Shown in pieces: positions 886 through 43,087 of a stretch of 64,000 nt of DNA (positions within the stretch are counted from its first letter, which is position 1; the number at the start of each line of letters is the position of its first letter). Below the pieces are notes generated by a model. That model saw only the letters and a list, made by a program, of their open reading frames with translations. It searched no databases and was not told the DNA's origin. The stretch comes from Nymphaea colorata (taxonomy: Eukaryota; Streptophyta; Magnoliopsida; Nymphaeales; Nymphaeaceae), in assembly GCF_008831285.2 (NCBI RefSeq), contig NC_045140.1:18040370-18104369 (forward strand). The letters run 5' to 3'. The translations under genes were made by a program, and so were the position numbers.

Positions 886-6422
<5,537 letters not shown>

Positions 6423-7215
6423 TTTTCAGAATTTGGTGGTTAATGATGCTAAGTAGGTATTCCAGACGTGACAATTTTTTGTCAAGTTAATGCAATTCAC
6501 GGCAAGGAAGAACCTTCTTACTATAAGTTGCATGCGGGGAACAGTTGCTCTAAGATAAATGAGCTACAAGCAATACGATGGCATCACTTACATTCTTCAG
6601 TGGATAGGATCTTTTTTTGTTGTATCTATATATAGGTTCAACTTCGAGATTTTGATTGTTGTTTAAACTCTAGCATCTGCATCTGTATGTGATTTCTTGA
6701 TTGAGTCTTCCTCAATAAGATGGCGATACTTCATCTTTTCATTTCTTTTTGTGGATGAGATGCCTAAGGAGCAAAGAGAGTAAAAGTAAATAAAAAACAC
6801 CATAGCATGTTACTCAGCGGGAAAAGAAGTTTACAATGCACTGTGAACTGGATTATTGAATTTTATATATGTGCTTGTCTAATTTTTCCCTAGTGGACTT
6901 GTAATGTTTTGTAAAATATTTTTCAGAAGCAAATTACTGATCACCCAAGACCAGAATCATGAGGTTTCATGTCGAGCATTGTCGACCAAAAAATAATTAT
7001 TGCAATCCCATGTTTCTCTAAATTTGAAGATTATTGTGATCTGTGATTTCCAGTCACATCATCTGTGGGAAATCCAAGCTTGTCTGTGCCTACGAGAATG
7101 TGCCCTTTGATATTATTTTGTTTATTGTGGAGCATCTGAAAGAATAAATGTGCATTTCAGAAAGCAACTTAGAAATAAAATAAATCTATTGGGAACTCTT
7201 GCCCCGGAAGGTATG
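6423..7215 (+). repeat. 3' UTR and flank of ABCC gene 1 (duplicated block)
   Basis: No further coding sequence. The region is nearly identical to 34486-35254, so the duplication that made the pseudogene reached about 770 bases past the stop codon. A CAATAAGA near 6713 is a weak poly(A)-signal candidate. Similarity to the second copy ends abruptly at about 7213, after the shared GGGAACTCTTGCCC. This marks the right edge of the duplicated unit. Confidence 0.7.
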
Positions 7216-23340: not shown

Positions 23341-23747
23341 TGTGAAATATTTTTCTCATGACGATGGGCACGTTGAACAAGAAAAGAAGGTTTATCAATG
23401 GAATGATGATTTCTTTATTAAAAATTCAAGATAATATATACAATAGATTTACAATTCACGTAAAAAGTTTTTCAAAGATACATTTGATATTTGATGCAAG
23501 TTGATATTTTTCTGATGAGGATGGGCAAGTTGAACAAGAAAAGAAGGTTTATCAATGGAATGATGATTTCTTTATTAAAAATTCAAGATAATATATACAA
23601 TAGATTTACAATTCACGTAAAAAGTTTTTCAAAGATACATTTGATATTTGATGCAAGTTGAAGTGGAGAGCCTTGACATGAACGTTGAAGTTGAGGTGGA
23701 CGTTGAGGTGCCGTTGGGTTTGAACGTTGTAAAACTTTCCTTTAACA
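23341..23747 (-). repeat. 3' LTR of the copia element, internally duplicated
   Basis: Contains a 153-bp tandem duplication: the block from 23348 is repeated from 23501. Both copies contain GATGGGCA followed by TTGAACAAGAAAAGAAGG. Without the duplication the LTR would be about 254 bp. Confidence 0.75.
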
Positions 23748-23754
23748 CTCCCCC

Positions 23755-26700
23755 TTCACCTTCAAACACACATGTGTGTAAAGATTGATGATACCTAGTT
23801 TGAATAATAGATGATAAAAGCCTTCTTTTCCTAATGCTTTCGTAAATAGGTCTGCTAGCTGGTCTTTACTTCGAATGTAACATGTGCATATTGTCCTCTG
23901 AAGCAATTTTTCTCGTACGATGTGACAATCTAGTTCAATATGTTTCATACGCTCATGAAAAACTGGATTTGCAGCTATATGTAATGCTACTTGATTGTCA
24001 CAAAAAATTGTTACTGGATGTAGTTGACATACTCCAAACTCGTTCAATAGATATCTTAACCATGTTTTTTTGCATACCACATTTGCCATGGATCTATATT
24101 CAGCTTCAGCAAAAGATCGTTATACTATTTGTTGTTTCTTTGACTTTCAAGATATGAGAACTGGGCCAAGAAACACACAATAACCAGTGATAGATCGTCA
24201 CATTTGACGCAGGCAGCCCAATCTGAATCACAAAAGACACTTAACTGCATATTATTCCATTTACTCATTAAGATTCCTTGGCCTGGATTTTTCTTGAGGT
24301 ATCAAATCGCTCAAAGTGCCGCTTGTAGGTGCTGTATGCGTGGTTGTTGCATGAACCTGCTTAAGACGTGTACGGCATATTGTATATCTGGGTGTGTAAT
24401 GGTGAGGTAGATTAATCTCCTAACAAGCCGACAATATTGTATTGGATCCTTGATGTAGTCTCCAAGATTTTCGTCCAACCCATGTTTTTGTTCCATTGGT
24501 GTTTCTGTTTGTTTTGCTCATAAAAAACTTGTTTCATGAATAATATCTAGTGCATATTTTTGTTGTGAGAGATATATACCTTTTAAAGAACATGCAATTT
24601 CAATTCCCAAAAAAATACTTAGGTTTGCCTAAGTATTTCATGTGGAATTTTTGACATAGAAATGATTTGAAGTTATCAATTGCATCCTTCACGTTTCATG
24701 CAATTATCAAGTCATCAACGTATACAAGAATGACAAGAAATATTTTATCACCCTTGTATGTAAAAAAGGAGTAGTCAGCTTTAGATTGCGTAAAACCATA
24801 CTCTTGTAGAGCAATTGAAAGCTTGTGAAACCAATTTCTTGGAGATTGTTTTAAACCGTAAAGGGATTTATGTAATTTACATACCTGATTCTCCCCCAGT
24901 TGAACATACCCTTGAAGTATTTTCATGTAGACTTTTTCATGCAAGTCGCCATGTAGAAAAGCATTATTGACGTCCATTTGGCACATGACCCGATCTTGAT
25001 TAGCTGTTATAGTGAAAAAAGTACGTACCGTGACCATTTTTGCAACTGGGGTGAAAGTTTCATTATAGTCTAATCCCTCTTGTTGAGCATATCCTTTGGC
25101 CACCAGCCTCGCCTTGTAACGTTCTATAGACCCATCTGAATTTAGTTTAATCTTATAAACCCATTTGCACCCGATTGGTTTCACCCCGATTGGAAGTGAA
25201 GTAACAGTCCAAGTCTTGTTTTCTTATAAGACATTAATCTCGCTATCCATGGCGTCTCTCCATTCCTTATGTTGAACGGCTTCTTCAAAGGTTTGTGGCT
25301 CAGAATTGAAAACAAGAGATGTGAGAAACACAAAATGATTACTACAAAACCGATGAAAAGAAATAAAATTTATTATAGGATACCTCGTTCCTTGTTGATA
25401 ACCTGATTTGGAGATGTCGTTGGTTGAGGGTGAGGTAAGGAGTGAACATTGAAAATCATTCAACCATACCGTTGGTTTTCTTACACGAGTAGATCTCCTA
25501 GATACTAAAAATGGATTCAGATCTGAATTTGGATCAAACAAAGATGGGTTTGGTTCATCTAAAGATGGATCTGGATTAGACAATGATAGGTTTGGTTCAT
25601 TGGTTTCTTGATCAACTTCCATTTCTAGGTTAAGGGGACTAGAAATGGACGTGTCGTTCCTTATAGCTTGAGTATGATAGATGTCTAGGTGATAAGGAAT
25701 GGGTAAAGCAATACATTTTTCACCAACCTTTTTATTTTGAAAAGGAAAAACATTTTCATGAAAGATTACATCGCGACTAACAAACACCTTGTGGGTCTCA
25801 AGATCGTAAAGTTTATAGGCTTTTTGTCTGTCCGGGTACCCAAAGAAAATGCATTTAATCGCTCTAGAATCGAATTTGTGTTTGTGTTGGCATGTATTTG
25901 TGGCATAACATAAGGATCCAAAAACTCTATGTTTGATGCTTGGTTTTTTGCCAAATAATATTTCAAAAGAGGATTTTTCTTTTAGTTTTGATGATGGTAA
26001 TCGGTTAATTAGATATGTGGCTGTCAAAACACATTCGCTCCAAAAATGCAAAGGTAAGTTTGCTTCAAAACGTAGGGCCCTTGCAACTTCAAGAAGATGG
26101 CGGTGTTTACGTTCCACAATGCCATTTTGTTGAGGGGTAGCCACACAACTATGTTGATGAGTGGTACATTGTTTTTGTAAAAAATCTTTCATTTCATATG
26201 AAAAAAATTCAGTCCCATTATCCGTTCACAAATATTTAATTTGACAATTAAACTGCGTTTTAATCAAGTCAAAAAAAATTTTTGATAAGATGCAAGGTTT
26301 CATATTTATGTCTCATTAAGAAAATCCAAGTGACATGAGAGTAATCATTTACAATGCTAAGAAAATAATGCACACCAGAAATAGTGGATTGAGCATACGG
26401 GCCCCAAATATCACAATGAATTAAATCAAAAGGATGCATTGTAGATATTTAACTCAAGCCAAACTTAAGTCGAGTTTGTTTTGCTCGATGACAAACATCA
26501 CAAACATAGTCATCATTCACGCCAAAGTTTAAATTTAAATAATTGGTCACCGGCTTTAAGCGAGAATGTGAAACATAACCTAATCTTTTATGCCAAAGTT
26601 CATGAGTAGAAACGGCCAGACAAGCTTGAACAAATGGTGGTCTTTGTTGAAGAACATATAGTCCACCTTTTACCTCACCCTGCCCAATCGTCATCTTCGA

Positions 26701-26990
26701 TTCCAAGTCCTGTATAATACAATAATCAGATAGGAAAGTTATGGAACAATTTAAATTTTTAGTTAATTCACTAACTGAAAGTAAATTAACTTTAAAAGAT
26801 GGAATGCATAATACATCATTAGCTTCAAACAAAGGCAATGATTGTTTACCCGCCTGATGAACTGGAATTGTTTTTCCATTTGTTAATGTCACGGGAACAA
26901 TTGCATGATTTTAAGTTTTGGAGCATATTTTCATTAAAACAAATATGACGACTCGCTCCCGAGTCAATAATCCAAGTACAAGATTGAGTA
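23755..26990 (-). pseudogene. copia pol remnant (PR, INT, RT, RNase H)
   Basis: Read from high to low coordinates. The aspartic protease motif DSGAS lies near 26955. The pre-integrase HHCC zinc motif is at about 26610 (HKRLG) and 26490 (CDVCH). The integrase core and a C-terminal region with the RRSTRVRKP tail are in 26192-25224. Reverse transcriptase is in 25184-24311 with the catalytic YVDD near 24715. The RNase H C-terminal part is in 24089-23742. The frame breaks between at least four blocks (near 26450-26200, 25224-25184, 24690-24500 and 24310-24090). Family membership is certain from motif order; activity is lost. Confidence 0.9.
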
Positions 26991-28163
26991 TTAATGGAAT
27001 AAATGTTACCTCCATGAACGACATTACCTGCAAAGTTGATACTGGTTTGCTGGTTTTTCACCAAGGATAGCAATTTGTGATATTCTTCAAGAGTAAATAC
27101 TGGAGCAGAACCTTTAGTGTCTAGTCCTCCACAACTTAGACCCCCAACACCATCAAAGGGAGTCGGTTTCACATAAGGTGTATTGTTCCTTTGAGACACA
27201 TTAGCTGCAATTGAAGATTTAAAATTAGGATCATAGAAACGATGTCGTGGAGGGTACCCAATGAGTTTGAAGCACTTTTCTTTAATGTGTCCAATTCCTC
27301 GACAATGGCTACAAATAGGCCGATTTTGACGTCCTCCTTTGGTTCTATAAAAGCCACCATAGTTAGCATCGTGACTTTTAACGTGCTCACTTTGTTTGAC
27401 TGCCAAGGCTGCAGTCCCTTCGTTAGCCGAACCAGAAAATCGTGCCTCACGCTGTTTTTCTTCTTGAAGAACCATCGCATAAACTTTGTTGACATTAGGA
27501 AGGGGATCAAGAAGTAAAATCTGGCCTCTAACAGCATTATAAGAATCATTGAGGCCCATTAGGAATTGGATAACATGTTCCCTTTGGATTTGTTCCGAAT
27601 ACGATTTCATGGCTCCACAAGAACACATGGGAATGGGAGAATATGAACTAAGTTCGTCCCAAAGAGCTTTTAATTTGGTAAAATATAATGCAACAGTCAT
27701 AGTATCTTGTTGTAGATGACTAATAGCACTCTGGATTTGATAGATCCGAGGGGCAAGACTTTGAGTAAATCGTTCTCGTAAATCTCCCCAAACTTCTCTA
27801 GCATTAGTCGAATAAATAACACTTTCTACAATATCTTTATTGACTGAATTTAAGATTCAAGAAAGTATCATATTGTTGGACCGAACCCATAGATGATAGC
27901 TCGGATCATCCTTTTCTAGTTCCTTGATAGACCCATCATTGAAACCAATTTTGTTTTTTGCTGAAAGAGCCATCAACATGGCTCTGCTCCACATCCCATA
28001 ATTTTCCCCATTAAAATGTTGTGAAACCAAGACATTTTCAGGGTTGTCAAATGGTGAATAAAGAATGGGTTAGACATCACCTGGGACAGATCTGCGCCAT
28101 TGAGATCAACATGAACGACATCATCCGCCTTTTGTTTATCGTTGTTCTCATCAACTCCACAGA
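26991..28163 (-). pseudogene. copia gag remnant
   Basis: The N-terminal Gag part lies in 28163-27973, then a frameshift, then an in-frame stop near 27855 where the family has a tryptophan. The long C-terminal frame is 27700-26991. The nucleocapsid zinc knuckle CSHCRGIGHIKEKC (C-X2-C-X4-H-X4-C) lies near 27310-27270. Gag begins almost directly at the LTR border, so the leader and the usual tRNA-primer site are missing. Confidence 0.85.
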
Positions 28164-28380
28164 TGAACAAGAAAAGAAGGTTTATCAATGGAAGGATGAT
28201 TTCTTTATTAAAAATTCAAGATAATATATACAATAGATTTACAACGGTAAGGAGTGAGCTCTCCTTCCTTCACGTAAAAAGTTTTCCAAAGATACATTTG
28301 ATATTTGAGGCAAGTTGAGGGGCCTTGACATGAACACTGAAGTTGAGTTGCCGCTGGGTTTGAACGTTGTAAAACTTTCC
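28164..28380 (-). repeat. 5' LTR of the copia element, trimmed at both ends
   Basis: Matches 23531-23747. It carries a 20-odd-base imperfect palindrome around 28246-28268 (AAGGAGTGAGCTCTCCTT) that the other LTR lacks. It also lacks the outer ~34 bases seen at 23341-23374, so a deletion joined the LTR to gag. Confidence 0.75.
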
Positions 28381-28639
28381 TGCTTTATCCTCGCTGGCAG
28401 GAACGGGAGGTGTGCTTTTCTGTCATCCAAACTCAGAGGAAGACGGTGTACTCCTTCTCGGTGAAATTCAGCAATGAGAATAGCACTTAGGTAAGTTAAT
28501 TAGATGCATCTTTCGAATGTCCTCCATGCTCTTAATATCAAGGAAAATATTATTTTTGTATCCAAACTTATAGATAATTCCAAATTTACAATTCTGCTAC
28601 TGAATTCACTTCATCTTTTGCTTATGTCAAGGACATTAC

Positions 28640-29224
28640 AATGAGGAAGACGTTCCCTAAAGGAGAGAGATGCAGAGACATAAAGAAGATCCTGCAGTTG
28701 CTGTCTCATCTCAAAACCCTGGGGTTTATGGTCTTGATAAATGTAATAAGCCAAATATTTGGCATTCACAGTTTGGTCATTGTTGTCGTGTCGTTGTTGA
28801 GAGTCTTGTGATAGATGATCTTCTTCTTAAGTTTAGTGTAAGTTTCAGTTCTTGTGGTTAGTTGTGTCCCAGTTGTCATTTGTGTAAGGTTCATGTTCTT
28901 CCTTTTCAATCGATAATGAAAGCGCTTCACAGCCTTTTGAGATCATTTGTTAAGATGTGCTGGACCTGCTCTTGAACCTTCAAATTCTGAAAGTAAACAT
29001 TATGTTCTTTTCCTTGACAGCTTTTCTCATTTCACATGGATATACTTCATGAAAGATAAGTCTCAAATTATCCCATACTAAGTATATAAACATTTTTTTG
29101 TTGATCTAAAATTTGGTATAAACATTTTTTCTGTTCAAGTCACTTTGTTCAATATTTTCAAAACCTTCCACTTCTAGGAGAATATCATCGGCACTATGAA
29201 CAGAAACCTCATTTGCAAGAGATT
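28640..29224 (+). mobile_element. Second, older copia pol fragment
   Basis: Opposite strand to the element at 23.3-28.4 kb. The pre-integrase zinc region is visible (IWHSQFGH near 28755, then CPSCHLC near 28868-28890 and a trailing VHVLPF). The start of the integrase core follows near 28993-29075 (HYVLFLDSFSHFTWIYF, with the conserved FLD and W). It has several stops and frameshifts and neither LTR. Its right edge touches the truncated ABCC pseudogene, so this element or its deletion probably removed that gene's 5' end. Confidence 0.75.
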
Positions 29225-30410
29225 GGGATGGTTCAAAACGTTGTTTTGCACTGTCTGGAAGGAAGTATTATGGACAGCGTTCCTCTGCCTACTGCATACT
29301 CTTTCTACGTTTGTTGGTTCTTACCTTATCGACTCACTGGTCCAGTATGTCAATGGCCGCCAGAGGTTTGCCCACGAAGGCTACTTCCTGGTTATTGTCT
29401 TTCTTTCCGCTAAGGTGGTGCAAAGTGTCTCACAGCGACACTGGCTTTTCATAACACGGCAGATTGGTATCAGAAACAGAGCAGCACTGAGTGCCATGAT
29501 TTATGAAAAAGGTCTTTCTCTCTCTAGCAAATCTCGGAAGCAACGTACTAGCGGGGAGATCATAAATCTGGTGAGTGTGGACGCCCGTAGGATTGGCGAA
29601 TTTAGTGGGTACTTGCATGACCTGTGGGTGGTGCCTCTTGAAGTTACTATTGCTTTAGCAATTCTATACAAGAAACTCGGATTAGCTTCAATTGCTGCCT
29701 TGATAGCTGCTTTCCTGGTTATGTTGGCAAACTTTTTAAATGGCAAGAGGACTTCCAAGAAAAGCTTATGGAGACAAAGGATGAGAGCATGAAGGCAACT
29801 TCCGAGATCTTGAGGAACATGAGGATTCTGAAACTCCAGGCTTGGGAAATGAGGTTCTTGTCAAAGATTATGGACTTACGGAAAACTGAAGAAAGTTGGT
29901 TGAAAAAACTCATTTATACATCAGCATTTATGAATTTTGTTATTTGGGGTGCACCTATTTTCATATCTGCAGCTGCGTTTGGGTCGTGCATGATTCTGGG
30001 AATCCCACTTAGGTCCGGAAAGGTTCTATCGGCACTCGCTACATTTGAGATACTACAGCAGCCAATTTACACCCTGCCAGACACTATTTCAATGATCACG
30101 CAAGTTAAAGTTTCCCTTGATAGGATTTCATCTTTTCTTCAACTTGAAGATATGCAACCAGACGCAGTTGAGAAATTGCCTAAAGACAATTTTATGCCAG
30201 CTGTTGAGATATGTGATGGTACCTTCTCTTGGGATCCACTATCAAGCCATTCTACCCTGCAAAATCTCAATTTGAAAGTTAACCATGGGATGAAGATTGC
30301 GGTCTGTGGTCCTGTTGGTTCAGGAAAAACTAGCCTGCTTTCTTGCATTCTAGGCGAGGTTCCAAGGATATTTGGAACTGTCCGTTTGAGTGAAAGAACT
30401 GCCTATGTTG

Positions 30411-30980
30411 TGTTGGTGTATGGAACTTGATCCATACTGGACACTCATTTATAATAATGTAAGGGCATATATGTCATTTTGTACAAATGCGGGTTGGCCC
30501 TAATCCTTATGTTTTGAGGATGGCTGCCGCTGGTGAGTGTCTGTACTGTGTGTTCATCTAAGAGAGAGAATACAAGAGATCTGTGTGATCGTGGATGTAG
30601 GAGATTATTGCTCCGAACCATGTAAATTGTTGTCTTCTTCCTTGTTGCTTCTAACCCTCTTTTGAGAGTGCGAGAGGAGAGTTTATTGTGTTTTGTTCCT
30701 AACAGATCTCAAGTCATGCAGCTCAACTGTAGAGATGTCAATACCGTCTATCACAATCTGACCACATGATGGGTCAATTATGCGAAAGAGTGTTTGCACA
30801 AGCGTGGATTTCCCACTGCCTGTTCTTCCCACTATGCTCGTCTTTGACCCTCCACGAAAGGTGCATGTGGACGTAGGAGATTATTGCTCCGAACTACGTA
30901 AATCGTTGTTTTCTTCCTTGTTGCTTCTAACCTCCTCTTGAGAGTGCGAGAGGAGAGTTTATTGTGTTTTGTTCCTAACA
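30411..30980 (+). mobile_element. LTR-type element carrying an antisense ABCC fragment
   Basis: Starts TGTTGGTG and ends TTCCTAACA. It is flanked by identical TGTTG (30406-30410 and 30981-30985), and removing it restores the ABCC exon alignment. Structure: full LTR 30411-30704 (294 bp); 165 bp of inverted ABCC NBD2 sequence, 30705-30869; then 30867-30980, a second copy of the last 114 bp of the LTR. There is no primer-binding site, polypurine tract or own coding. Strand is given from the LTR's TG-to-CA reading and could be either. It resembles a miniature LTR (TRIM-like) element that captured host sequence, perhaps by template switching at the 3-base GTG shared at the right junction. Confidence 0.85.
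30705..30869 (-). pseudogene. Captured antisense ABCC NBD2 fragment
   Basis: Reverse complement of exon 7 coding sequence. By my alignment it differs at 4 of 165 positions from 33522-33686 (the host pseudogene) and at 6 from 5498-5662 (gene 1). The fragment covers NBD2 Walker A and the following strand. Two diagnostic bases (CACCTTTCG and GACGGT versions) match the pseudogene rather than gene 1, so the donor was probably the pseudogene or its recent ancestor. Confidence 0.85.
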
Positions 30981-33900
30981 TGTTGTTCAGTCTCCTTGGG
31001 TACAGGGTGGTAAGATTGAATTAGAATATTCTTTTCGGCAAAGAGATGGACAGAGAAAGGTGTGAACAGGTCCTTGATGTTTGTGATTTAAAGAAGGACC
31101 TGGAAATACTGCCCTTTGGAGATCAAACCATCACAGGGGAAAGAGGAATTAACCTGAGTGGTGGGCAGAAACAGAGAGTGCAAATTGCACGGGCTCTATA
31201 CCAGGATGCTGACATTTATTTACTTGATGATCCTTTTACTGCTGTTGTCGCTCACACCGGAAGTCACCTTTTTAAGGTATGTGTTTTTTTTTTTTTTGCG
31301 ACTAATTTCCTGCATTTAATATTTCATCAGTCTAATTATGTGATGCACCTAATCAGGGTACTGATAACGAGATAAAATCTTCAGATTCATGATTGAAATG
31401 TATTTCTCCTTTTCATACTTTATGTTCTTCAATGCTTTGGTCCCTTGTTGGTTCTGAAAGTTCTCATTCCTGAGGGTGTAAGTCATTTATATGAAATGCA
31501 ACACATAAAAGTTGACTTCTTTTGCCACGTGCAAATTACTTCATTTTTGCGGGAATGTTTGCATGGTTTCTTAGGTTCAAAGACTCTGTAACCCATCAAG
31601 TGGAATTTCTACCCAGTGCTGATATTGTTCTGGTGAGTTTTTTGGTGTCTTTGATTATTGTTCTCAAGTTTCTTCTTTTCGTTTCTGGTGGAGTTTCTGG
31701 CCTCTAAATTCGTGGTTATGTCTCATCGTAGGTTATGCGAGATGGGAGGATTACATAATCTGGTCATTATGCTAGCATTCTTAGCTCTGGATCCGACTTC
31801 ATGGAACTGGTTGGTGCACATGAGCATACTCTGTCAGCCCTAAAAGCTGCTGGTGCTGCTCTTGATTCACAACCATCAGATGTCAATGATTTAAACATAG
31901 GTCCTAAGGTGGAAAGCAATGAAAAGGATGAATTTGGATATGATGAGATTAATGATGATAAAGATAAGATAGAACAGCTGGTAGAGGAAAAGTACCAGCT
32001 TGTTCAAGAAGAAGAGAGAGAGGAAGGAAGAGTCGGCCTCTCAGTATACTGGGAATATATTACAGCAACATATGGTGGGGCATTAGTCCCATTGATTCTA
32101 CTTAGTCAAATTGCCTTTAACTCTTTTGAAATAGGAAGCAATTATTGGGTGGCATCAGCCACACCAGTTTCTGATGAGAAGTCATCTCCTGTGGGCGGAA
32201 TTACTTTGATTTTAGTCTACGTTGTGTTGTCGATGGCTAGTGCTATATGTGACCTGATCATGGCCTTGTTAATAGGAACTGTTGGCTTTAAAACTGCAAC
32301 AGTACTCTTCAATAAGCTGCACATGTGCATATTTCGTTCACCAATGTCGTTCTTTGATTCTACTCCAACTGGTCGTATTCTAAACAGGGTAAGTCCATTT
32401 GTTGTTGTCTTCTTGTTGTAGTTCCACTCAGCCAGGAGCATGTTGTATTTACCTTTTTTCTTTTCCTTCAGGTATCAACTGATGAGAGTGAAGTAGACCT
32501 ATCCATTTTAGGGTTGATGGGATCTTGTGCTTTCTATGTTATAGAGCTTCTTGCGAGCATTGCAGTGATTTCACAGATTTCATGGCAAGTTTTTGTTGTT
32601 TTCGTACCAGTTGTTGCTGCCTGCGTGTGGTTGCAGGTAAGGATGCTTCAGTGTTGTGTATACTGTACTAGAAACTTTTTTGGGTGAATATACATAGATT
32701 TGGAAAGGATGCTTTTCCAATTTTTTTCTCTAGATTTTTGTTTCATCAGTTGATTTGGTTGATTTCAATGGCTCATATTGTGGCAGCAATACTACTTGCC
32801 CACTTCTCGTGAACTAGCCCGATTGGAGTTTGAGGCCCCTATGCTGCAGATTTTTTGGAGACTATCTCTGGATCATCTATAATTAGGAGTTTCAATGAAG
32901 AGTCAAGATTCATGAGGACAAACCTCCTGGTGATAGATAACTTTTCTAAGCCAACTTTCATTCTGCTGCTGCAATGGAGTGGCTTTGTTTGCGCTTGGAT
33001 CTTCTGTCGTCTCTCATTTTTGCATTTTCTTTGGTTTTCTTGATCTCATTGCCCATGGGCATAATTGATCCAGGGAACTGCATTCATATCTTGCAAGACC
33101 ACATATTCTCACTGCATCTAACATCTAAGAGATATCATGAAGTATGTATGATCTGCATATTCTCAAAACTGTTCTTTTATTTTTTCTTTCAGGAATTGCA
33201 GGATTGGCCGTGACTTATGGGTTAAACCTGAACATGTTGCAAATATATTTCATATGGTGCTTAAATGTCGATAATAATATGATCTCTGTGGAACGAATTC
33301 TACAGTATCCTCGTATTCCTCCTGAACCTCCTCTTACAATAGAAACTAGCATGCCAAGCAGGGATTGGCCATCTTATGGAGAAATTGATATCAGCAATCT
33401 GCAGGTAGTTATGGCTTTATCACATGTCAAAGTCTGTCTTTGAAAATGGAGTCGGCATTAACATTTGGCATTTGGTGTACGTCCGCTATGCTCCTCATCT
33501 GCCACTGGTTTTAAAAGGTCTCACATGCACCTTTCGTGGAGGGTCAAAGACGGGCATAGTGGGAAGAACAGGCAGTGGGAAATCCACGCTTGTGCAAACA
33601 CTCTTTCGCATTATTGACCCATCATGTGGTCAGATTGTGATAGACGGTATTGACATCTCTACAGTTGGGCTGCATGACCTGAGATCTAGATTAAGCATCA
33701 TCCCTCAAGAACCAACAATGTTTGAGGGAACCATAAGGACCAATCTTGATTCTTTGGAAGAATATACTGATGAAGAAATTTGGGAGGTATCCATGTGTTA
33801 TCCTTTGACAATTGTCGACATCGATTAGTCAAAGTTTTAAGATTACTTTCTTCTATGTCCTTTGTGCATGTTATGTTTCAGGCTTTAGACAAAACACAAA

Positions 33901-34003
33901 TGCCAACTTGGTGAAGTGGTGAGGCAGAAAGACCACAAGCTTGATGCAACAGGTCTGGTTCTTCATTTGTGATATTTTTGTCATAGTTGTATTTTGTGTC
34001 TAA

Positions 34004-34324
<321 letters not shown>

Positions 34325-34485
34325 TAACTACCTTTTGTTTTTTCCCATTAGGTACTGTTGCTGAATATGAATCTCCAGGAAAACTTTTGCAGGATGCCTC
34401 CTCAGCATTTTCAATGCTTGTAAATGAGTACGAGATGAGATCCAGCACTAGTTTTCAGAATTTGGTGGTTAATGATGCTAAGTAG

Positions 34486-35254
34486 TTATTCCAGACGTGA
34501 CAATTTTTTGTCAAGTTAATGCAATTCATGGCAAGGAAGAACCTTCTTACTAAGTTGCATGTGGAGAATAGTTGCTCTATAAGATAAATGAGCTACAAGC
34601 AATACGACGGCATCACTTACATTCTTCAGTGGATAGGATCTTTTTTTGTTGTGTCTACAGATAGGTTCAGATTTTAGATTTTGATTGTTGTTTAATCTCT
34701 AGCATCTGCATCTGTATATGATTTCTTGATTGAGTGTTCCTTAATAAGATGGCGATAATTTACCTTTTCATTTCTTTCTGTGGATGAGATGCCTAAGATG
34801 GAGCAAAGAGAGTAAAAGTAAATGGTTCACAAAGCACCAAAGCATTTTACTCAGTGGGAAAAGAACTTTACAATGCACTGTTAACTGGATTATTGAATTT
34901 TATATATGTGCTTATCTAATTTTTCACGAGTGGACTTATAATGTTTTTTAAAATATTTTTCAGAAGCAACTTACCGATCACCAGTACCGGGATCTAAGAC
35001 AAGAATCATGAAGTTTCATGTTGAGCCTTGTCGACCAAAGAATAATAATTGCAATTCCATGTTTCTCTAAATTTCAAGATTATTGTGATCTGTGATTTCC
35101 AGTCACATCATTCGTGGGAAATCCAAGCTTGTCTGTGCCTACGAAAATGTGCCCTTGATATTATTTTGTTTATTGTGGAGCATCTGAAAGCATGAATGTG
35201 CATTTCAGAAAGCAACTTAGAAATAAAATAAATCTATTGGGAACTCTTGCCCAG
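34486..35254 (+). repeat. Duplicated 3' flank of the ABCC pseudogene
   Basis: Matches 6423-7213 with small indels. The homology stops just after GGGAACTCTTGCCC at about 35252, defining the duplication breakpoint. No coding content. Confidence 0.75.

Positions 35255-37608: not shown

Positions 37609-43087
<5,479 letters not shown>

What the first reader, a model, noticed from the sequence alone, without database searches (positions are those of the whole stretch)
30406..30985. Miniature LTR element that captured an antisense piece of the gene family it landed in
A 570-bp insert with TG...CA ends and a perfect TGTTG target duplication interrupts the NBD1 exon of the ABCC pseudogene. Between a 294-bp LTR and a 114-bp partial LTR it carries 165 bp of ABCC NBD2 exon in antisense, closest to the host pseudogene itself (4 differences). 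It has no primer site, polypurine tract or own protein. LTR elements with captured host exons are known in plants, but one inserted back into the same gene, inverted, is unusual. It suggests a local event such as template switching on the host gene's own transcript.
Basis: partly seen in the sequence, partly recalled or inferred. Interest (0 to 1): 0.75.

Follow-up and report, generated by a model that had tools for sequence, protein, structure and literature searches.

The report
Retrotransposon scar patched with nearby DNA
A leftover end of an ordinary plant jumping gene, stuck in a dead transporter gene, contains a 165-letter backwards copy of the same gene's DNA from about 2.5 kb away, most likely a patch left when a DNA break was repaired with whatever was nearby; a known kind of repair scar rather than a new kind of element.

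Summary
Window 30411-30980 is a 570-bp insert with TG...CA ends and a perfect TGTTG duplication: a 294-bp Copia-type LTR, about 165 bp of ABCC NBD2 exon in antisense, and the last 114 bp of the LTR. The tandem paralogue at 1749-7204 keeps the empty site. The ABCC piece shares a derived base with the host pseudogene alone, so the host lineage was the donor. One such chimera was found in the assembly; it is not a miniature LTR family.

Repair at the site explains the locality directly: a break in the LTR was patched with nearby DNA and closed on 1 and 3 matching bases. A second member of the family (C9) carries a similar patch, a 98-bp copy of its own host flank. This matches published repair-mediated duplications (donor under 5 kb, mean 162 bp), including an exon copied inverted into its own gene. 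Whether the template was DNA or RNA, and by which route the break arose, stays open. Ordinary: a new member of a known kind.

The parts
30406..30410 (.). left target-site duplication TGTTG
   Evidence: the paralogue has a single TGTTG at 2940-2944
30411..30704 (+). complete 294-bp LTR of a Copia-type family
   Evidence: relatives with PBS, PPT and RVT_2
30704..30869 (-). captured piece of ABCC NBD2 exon, antisense to the host gene; base 30704 and bases 30867-30869 are shared with the LTR parts (1-nt and 3-nt microhomology)
30867..30980 (+). 114-bp LTR tail (LTR 181-294), a direct duplicate of 30591-30704
30981..30985 (.). right target-site duplication TGTTG
33522..33687 (+). donor stretch in the host pseudogene's NBD2 exon
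29222..35252 (+). host ABCC pseudogene: a 5'-truncated tandem copy of window 1749-7204, with a 7-bp gap against it after 29735
1749..7204 (+). paralogous gene region with the empty site (TGTTG at 2940-2944)

Best explanation
A Copia-type LTR retrotransposon inserted into the NBD1 exon of a partly duplicated ABCC gene (shown by LTR ends and target duplication). At or after integration a double-strand break in or at the end of its LTR was repaired by copying about 165 bp from the same gene about 2.5 kb downstream, read in the inverted direction, and by rejoining at LTR position 181-183 through a 3-base match (inferred from the junctions and the locality). The outcome is a templated filler flanked by a 114-bp duplication of the LTR end. 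Why the left junction sits exactly on the last LTR base is inferred. Route (a): the break fell in the unrepaired integration intermediate, whose bottom strand ends exactly there, so that filling in both overhangs gives this duplication. Route (b): the repair strand ran across the boundary of a second LTR that sat in the NBD2 exon of another allele. Route (c) is the second rival below. If the element was full length, ordinary LTR-LTR recombination later removed its body, as in the many solo LTRs of this family. The result is a dead insert with no activity of its own; its only foreseeable effect would be a 166-nt hairpin with NBD2 if the pseudogene is transcribed.
For: Donor on the same chromosome, 2,537 bp from the target site, and in the host's own lineage: at 33645 host and insert share C, while the paralogue at 5498-5663, the gene at 42171-42336 and the C8 paralogue have T. 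Single copy: 5 genome places for the piece, only this one with an LTR; of 70 LTR-end motif sites the next closest pair lies 2,642 bp apart. Junctions with 1 and 3 shared bases. The 8 differences between the two LTR tails are all minority C-to-T states, 5 in the 5' copy and 3 in the 3' copy, as expected for two copies that started alike, and both carry the minority T at LTR 282 (11 of 84 relatives). Changes in the ABCC piece (4 in 162) and in the LTR tails (8 in 228) are compatible with one age (Fisher p 0.77). Precedent in the family: G000:C9:22094602-22099374 has a polypurine tract, LTR 1-54, 3 bp, a 98-bp copy of the host flank (4 differences), then a full LTR and the matching AGTTT duplication. 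Published repair-mediated duplications: donor under 5 kb, mean 162 bp, microhomology 2-9 nt (PMC2671141, passages).
Against: The left junction falls exactly on the LTR terminus, which a random break would hit rarely; routes (a) and (b) explain it, but neither intermediate was seen. The 1-nt left match is at chance level (P of at least 1 about 0.44) and 3 nt is only weakly unusual (P of at least 3 about 0.05; simple simulation). The 5' copy shares three C-to-T states (LTR 179, 186, 248) with one relative, L044; the 3' tail lacks the last two and does not reach the first, which could mean two source LTRs, though these states recur in 8, 5 and 11 of 84 copies. All 8 tail differences recur in 1 to 11 of 84 relatives, so none is strictly private. 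The donor carries 0 changes of its own against 4 in the piece, an uneven split. The donor stretch lies inside one exon, so DNA and RNA templates cannot be told apart (exon ends read by eye).
Confidence: 0.8

Rival explanations
1. Capture during reverse transcription: in the virus-like particle the growing cDNA switched onto an ABCC transcript and back to an LTR end, and the chimeric cDNA was then integrated.
For: Both outer ends are intact LTR ends with a 5-bp target duplication; the exact LTR terminus at the left junction could be a plus-strand stop (inference); the orientation allows a sense transcript as template; template-switched LTR insertions with target duplications are published (PMC1950507, abstract and results section).
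Against: Needs an insertion to land in its own donor by chance (about 1.3e-5 under even insertion); only one copy found; no primer site or polypurine tract in the insert; the donor is a 5'-truncated frameshifted copy.
Confidence: 0.12
2. Route (c), counted within the 0.8 of the best explanation: a full-length element inserted first, and an internal deletion from the 5' LTR end to position 180 of the 3' LTR was later patched with the NBD2 piece, the two LTR parts being the two original LTRs.
For: Explains why the tail differences split between the two copies and the outer target duplication; relatives are full-length Copia elements.
Against: The left break would have to fall by chance exactly between the LTR and the primer site.
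Confidence: 0.2
3. Assembly artefact joining unrelated copies.
For: The locus lies in tandem paralogues and a repeat family; no reads were available.
Against: Every part differs from the other copies compared and the target duplication is perfect.
Confidence: 0.03

Closest known systems
Repair-mediated duplications by capture of proximal DNA (Pace et al. 2009, PMC2671141; passages seen)
   Same: A transposable element interrupted by a copy of DNA from within 5 kb; 162-166 bp here against a mean of 162 bp; short microhomology; the paper also reports an exon (ACSBG2) copied in opposite orientation into an intron of its own gene.
   Different: Described in vertebrates; here a plant-type Copia LTR, an exon-internal site, and a 114-bp duplication of the LTR end around the filler.
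Gap-filling capture by transposons, single-copy Pack-TIRs (PMC8277862; passages seen)
   Same: Single copy, bias to nearby donors, microhomology of a few bases.
   Different: Those are terminal-inverted-repeat DNA transposons in animals.
Plant filler DNA at end-joined breaks (maize p1/p2, PMC2686159; passages seen)
   Same: Filler copied from close to the break within a tandem gene cluster.
   Different: The fillers it cites are shorter (1-131 bp) and the one it describes lies in an intron, not in an LTR.
Complex LTR insertions by template switching (PMC1950507; abstract and results section)
   Same: One insertion with a 5-bp target duplication around an abnormal LTR arrangement.
   Different: Those have two core sequences and three LTRs; nothing of the element's core remains here.
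TRIM elements with gene pieces (PMC4717578; passages seen)
   Same: Small, with LTRs and exon sequence between.
   Different: TRIMs form subfamilies; this is a single insert with one truncated LTR.

Membership tests
Repair-mediated duplication (proximal capture) | donor on the same chromosome within 5 kb | tested here: met
   2,537 bp
Repair-mediated duplication (proximal capture) | length within the published range (proximal maximum 619 bp) | tested here: met
   162-166 bp
Repair-mediated duplication (proximal capture) | microhomology, filler or deletion at the breakpoints | tested here: met
   3 nt right, 1 nt left; the left one is at chance level and below the published 2-9 nt
Repair-mediated duplication (proximal capture) | uninterrupted element at the same site in a relative | not testable with these tools
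   no sister genome held; the paralogue lacks the insertion altogether
Copia LTR retrotransposon (source of the LTR) | LTR with TG...CA ends and 5-bp target duplication | tested here: met
Copia LTR retrotransposon (source of the LTR) | full-length relatives with primer site, polypurine tract and Copia-type reverse transcriptase | tested here: met
   17 of 84 LTR loci followed by a primer site and 15 of 84 preceded by a polypurine tract; RVT_2 in pieces of 2 of 2 elements sampled
Copia LTR retrotransposon (source of the LTR) | the insert itself is a complete element | tested here: not met
   no primer site, polypurine tract or protein in 30411-30980
TRIM / miniature LTR element | several dispersed copies of the same unit | tested here: not met
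   one chimera only
TRIM / miniature LTR element | two complete LTRs with primer site and polypurine tract between (definition recalled) | tested here: not met
   second LTR is 114 of 294 bp; neither site present
Retroposed gene capture by template switching | intron loss or poly(A) showing an RNA template | tested here: inconclusive
   the donor stretch lies inside one exon

The most novel reading that the evidence does not exclude
The break was in the integration intermediate itself, and the exposed LTR 3' end was extended on the host gene's own sense transcript (RNA-templated repair, perhaps by the element's own reverse transcriptase). The orientation of the piece allows this. The resulting inverted copy would also make the pseudogene a potential hairpin source of small RNAs against its intact neighbour (perfect runs of 22, 32, 58 and 21 nt to it).
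Probability: 0.08. Interest if true: 0.5.

Novelty: new member of a known kind. Interest (0 to 1): 0.22.

Why it matters
It shows how a repair scar can look like a gene-capturing mini-retrotransposon, and that donor distance, copy number and a shared derived base help to separate the two. The second case on C9 suggests that LTRs of this family have been patched with local DNA more than once, so part of what is counted as gene capture by LTR elements may be break repair after insertion. If the inverted copy were transcribed with NBD2 it could affect its neighbours, which is untested.

Tried and rejected
A miniature LTR family: rejected, one copy found. A donor other than the host: the paralogue at 5498-5663 has 6 differences and lacks the shared derived base. 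Two unrelated LTR sources for the two tails: considered because L044 shares LTR 179T, 186T and 248T with the 5' copy; left open but not favoured, since those states recur in 8, 5 and 11 of 84 copies while both tails share 282T (11 of 84). Exon or intron borders to tell RNA from DNA template: no information. Dating in years was not attempted.

Papers: the searches for an LTR filler or capture precedent (one search found 0 papers) listed related papers; I saw no title or abstract start describing a solo LTR that carries an inverted piece of its own host gene. That is not proof of absence in print. PMC13317346 and PMC8355091 were seen as passages only.

Dropped or weak rows: 21 of 84 LTR loci fell in no class in the automatic sorting, and at least one of the 21 called solo with a perfect duplication, L057, is in fact an end of the C9 element, so the class counts are rough. 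Columns where under 85% of copies agreed were left out of the change counts (which dropped LTR 248); one search used 34 of 39 copies.

Full report
What is there. The insert lies in the NBD1 exon of a degraded ABCC gene copy. It starts with a complete 294-bp LTR at 30411-30704, goes straight into 166 bp that match host 33522-33687 in antisense with 4 differences (30704-30869), and ends with LTR positions 181-294 (30867-30980). It is flanked by TGTTG on both sides. The left junction shares one base (A) between LTR end and donor, the right one three (GTG). The tandem paralogue at window 1749-7204 has the uninterrupted site with one TGTTG at 2940-2944.

The host. Window 29222-35252 is a partial tandem copy of 1749-7204: it lacks the first part of the first exon, has a 7-bp gap against the paralogue after 29735, and differs at 184 of 4,230 aligned sites right of the insert and 43 of 1,184 left of it.

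The LTR family. A search with the LTR gave 45 matches from 40 of 268 candidates scored, and an end-motif search gave 70 sites including the two here. Of 84 LTR loci fetched, 17 are followed by a primer site and 15 preceded by a polypurine tract; 21 were called solo LTRs with a perfect 5-bp duplication (at least one wrongly, L057) and 10 with four of five bases; 21 stayed unclassified (automatic sorting). Pieces from inside 2 full-length relatives carry a Copia-type reverse transcriptase domain.

The donor. In the whole assembly the ABCC piece matches 5 places: itself, the host NBD2, the two neighbouring genes in the window, and one place on C8. At the two sites where host and paralogue differ, the insert agrees with the host. 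At 33645 the host base C is shared only with the insert, while the paralogue, the third gene and C8 have T. At the four sites where insert and host differ, host and paralogue agree. So the piece was most likely copied from the host lineage after it split from the paralogue; this rests on one shared derived base.

Age of the parts. The two LTR tails differ at 8 sites; at each, 35 to 39 of 39 relatives have C and one tail has T, 5 times the 5' copy and 3 times the 3' copy. With 84 relatives each of these T states is found in 1 to 11 of them, so they are minority states rather than strictly private ones. Both tails share T at LTR 282, which 11 of 84 relatives have. The ABCC piece has 4 changes of its own in 162. 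These loads agree (Fisher p 0.77), so LTR and piece may be of one age, although 0 changes in the donor against 4 in the piece is uneven.

Which order. If the piece had been captured in a virus-like particle, the chimera would have to return by chance to the very gene copy it came from: 5,456 bp of 407.8 Mb, about 1.3e-5 under even insertion. Repair at the site needs no such chance, because fillers are often copied from nearby (PMC2686159 and PMC2671141, passages). The genome also holds a second case in this family. At C9:22094602-22099374 the 3' LTR stops after about 54 bases, is followed by 3 bases and a 98-bp copy of the element's left host flank (4 differences), then by a full LTR and the matching AGTTT. 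Only the two ends of that element were read; that they belong to one element is inferred from orientation, spacing, primer site, polypurine tract and target duplication. That host flank is not expected in the element's RNA, so that patch most likely arose after integration, by repair or by end joining between alleles. It also shows captured DNA joined exactly at an LTR end because an LTR-host boundary was copied.

How the exact left end may arise. In an unrepaired integration intermediate the bottom strand ends at the last LTR base. A break of the top strand at 180/181 would, after filling in, give one end at exactly 294 and another starting at 181, whose first bases GTG are the ones matched by the donor. 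That accounts for the target duplication, the 114-bp duplication, the exact left end and the right microhomology together. It is an inference from known integration chemistry (recalled). Copying across a second LTR in NBD2 of another allele would do the same; no such LTR is found in this assembly's copy of the gene.

Comparison. Pace et al. 2009 (PMC2671141, passages) describe transposable elements interrupted by copies from within 5 kb (mean length 162 bp, mean distance 1.2 kb, microhomology 2-9 nt), and an exon copied in the opposite orientation into its own gene. Single-copy captures in DNA transposons show the same locality and microhomology (PMC8277862, passages). The finding fits this kind in the features tested, with a left match shorter than the published range; the Copia LTR setting and the long LTR duplication are variations. 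I rate it as a new member of a known kind, with low interest.

Limits. Template (DNA or RNA) is undecided because the donor lies inside one exon.

Noticed in passing
G000:C9:22094602-22099374 (L057, L058, L088, L089), minus strand: Same LTR family: 3' LTR cut at about base 54, then 3 bp, a 98-bp copy of the left host flank (4 differences), then a complete LTR and the matching AGTTT duplication; a second local patch.
   Followed up: yes
window 30411-30980 (LTR parts): Polarised transitions in the insert's LTR parts are C to T on the + strand (9 against 0 G to A), while 84 relatives show 147 against 151 (p 0.0017, post hoc); the ABCC piece has 2 against 1. Perhaps linked to the transcribed strand of the host; unexplained.
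   Followed up: partly
window 30704-30869 with 33522-33687: 166-nt inverted pair, 98% complementary, 2,652 nt between the arms, within one gene copy; a possible hairpin with runs of 22, 32, 58 and 21 nt identical to the neighbouring gene.
   Followed up: partly
window 24696-27700, minus strand: Broken Copia-type element (RVT_2 and SH3_retrovirus matches, a Pol_BBD match below its cut-off) upstream of the host pseudogene.
   Followed up: no
window 28161-28381 and 23374-23741: Short repeat of 79-83% identity on both sides of that broken element.
   Followed up: no
L052, G000:C7:17440203-17440683: Solo LTR of the family with AAAAC on both sides that keeps only TGT and positions 111-294: another internal loss inside an LTR with the target duplication kept (read by eye).
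   Followed up: no
L062 and L069 (C11:22375424-22375904, C2:5507434-5507914): LTR heads with overlapping matches (1-46 with 19-294; 3-38 with 14-294), suggesting small tandem duplications inside the LTR.
   Followed up: no
L074 and L075 (C7:21564771-21565251, C7:21567413-21567893): Two headless LTRs 2,642 bp apart with nearly the same flanks, probably one insertion duplicated with its surroundings.
   Followed up: no
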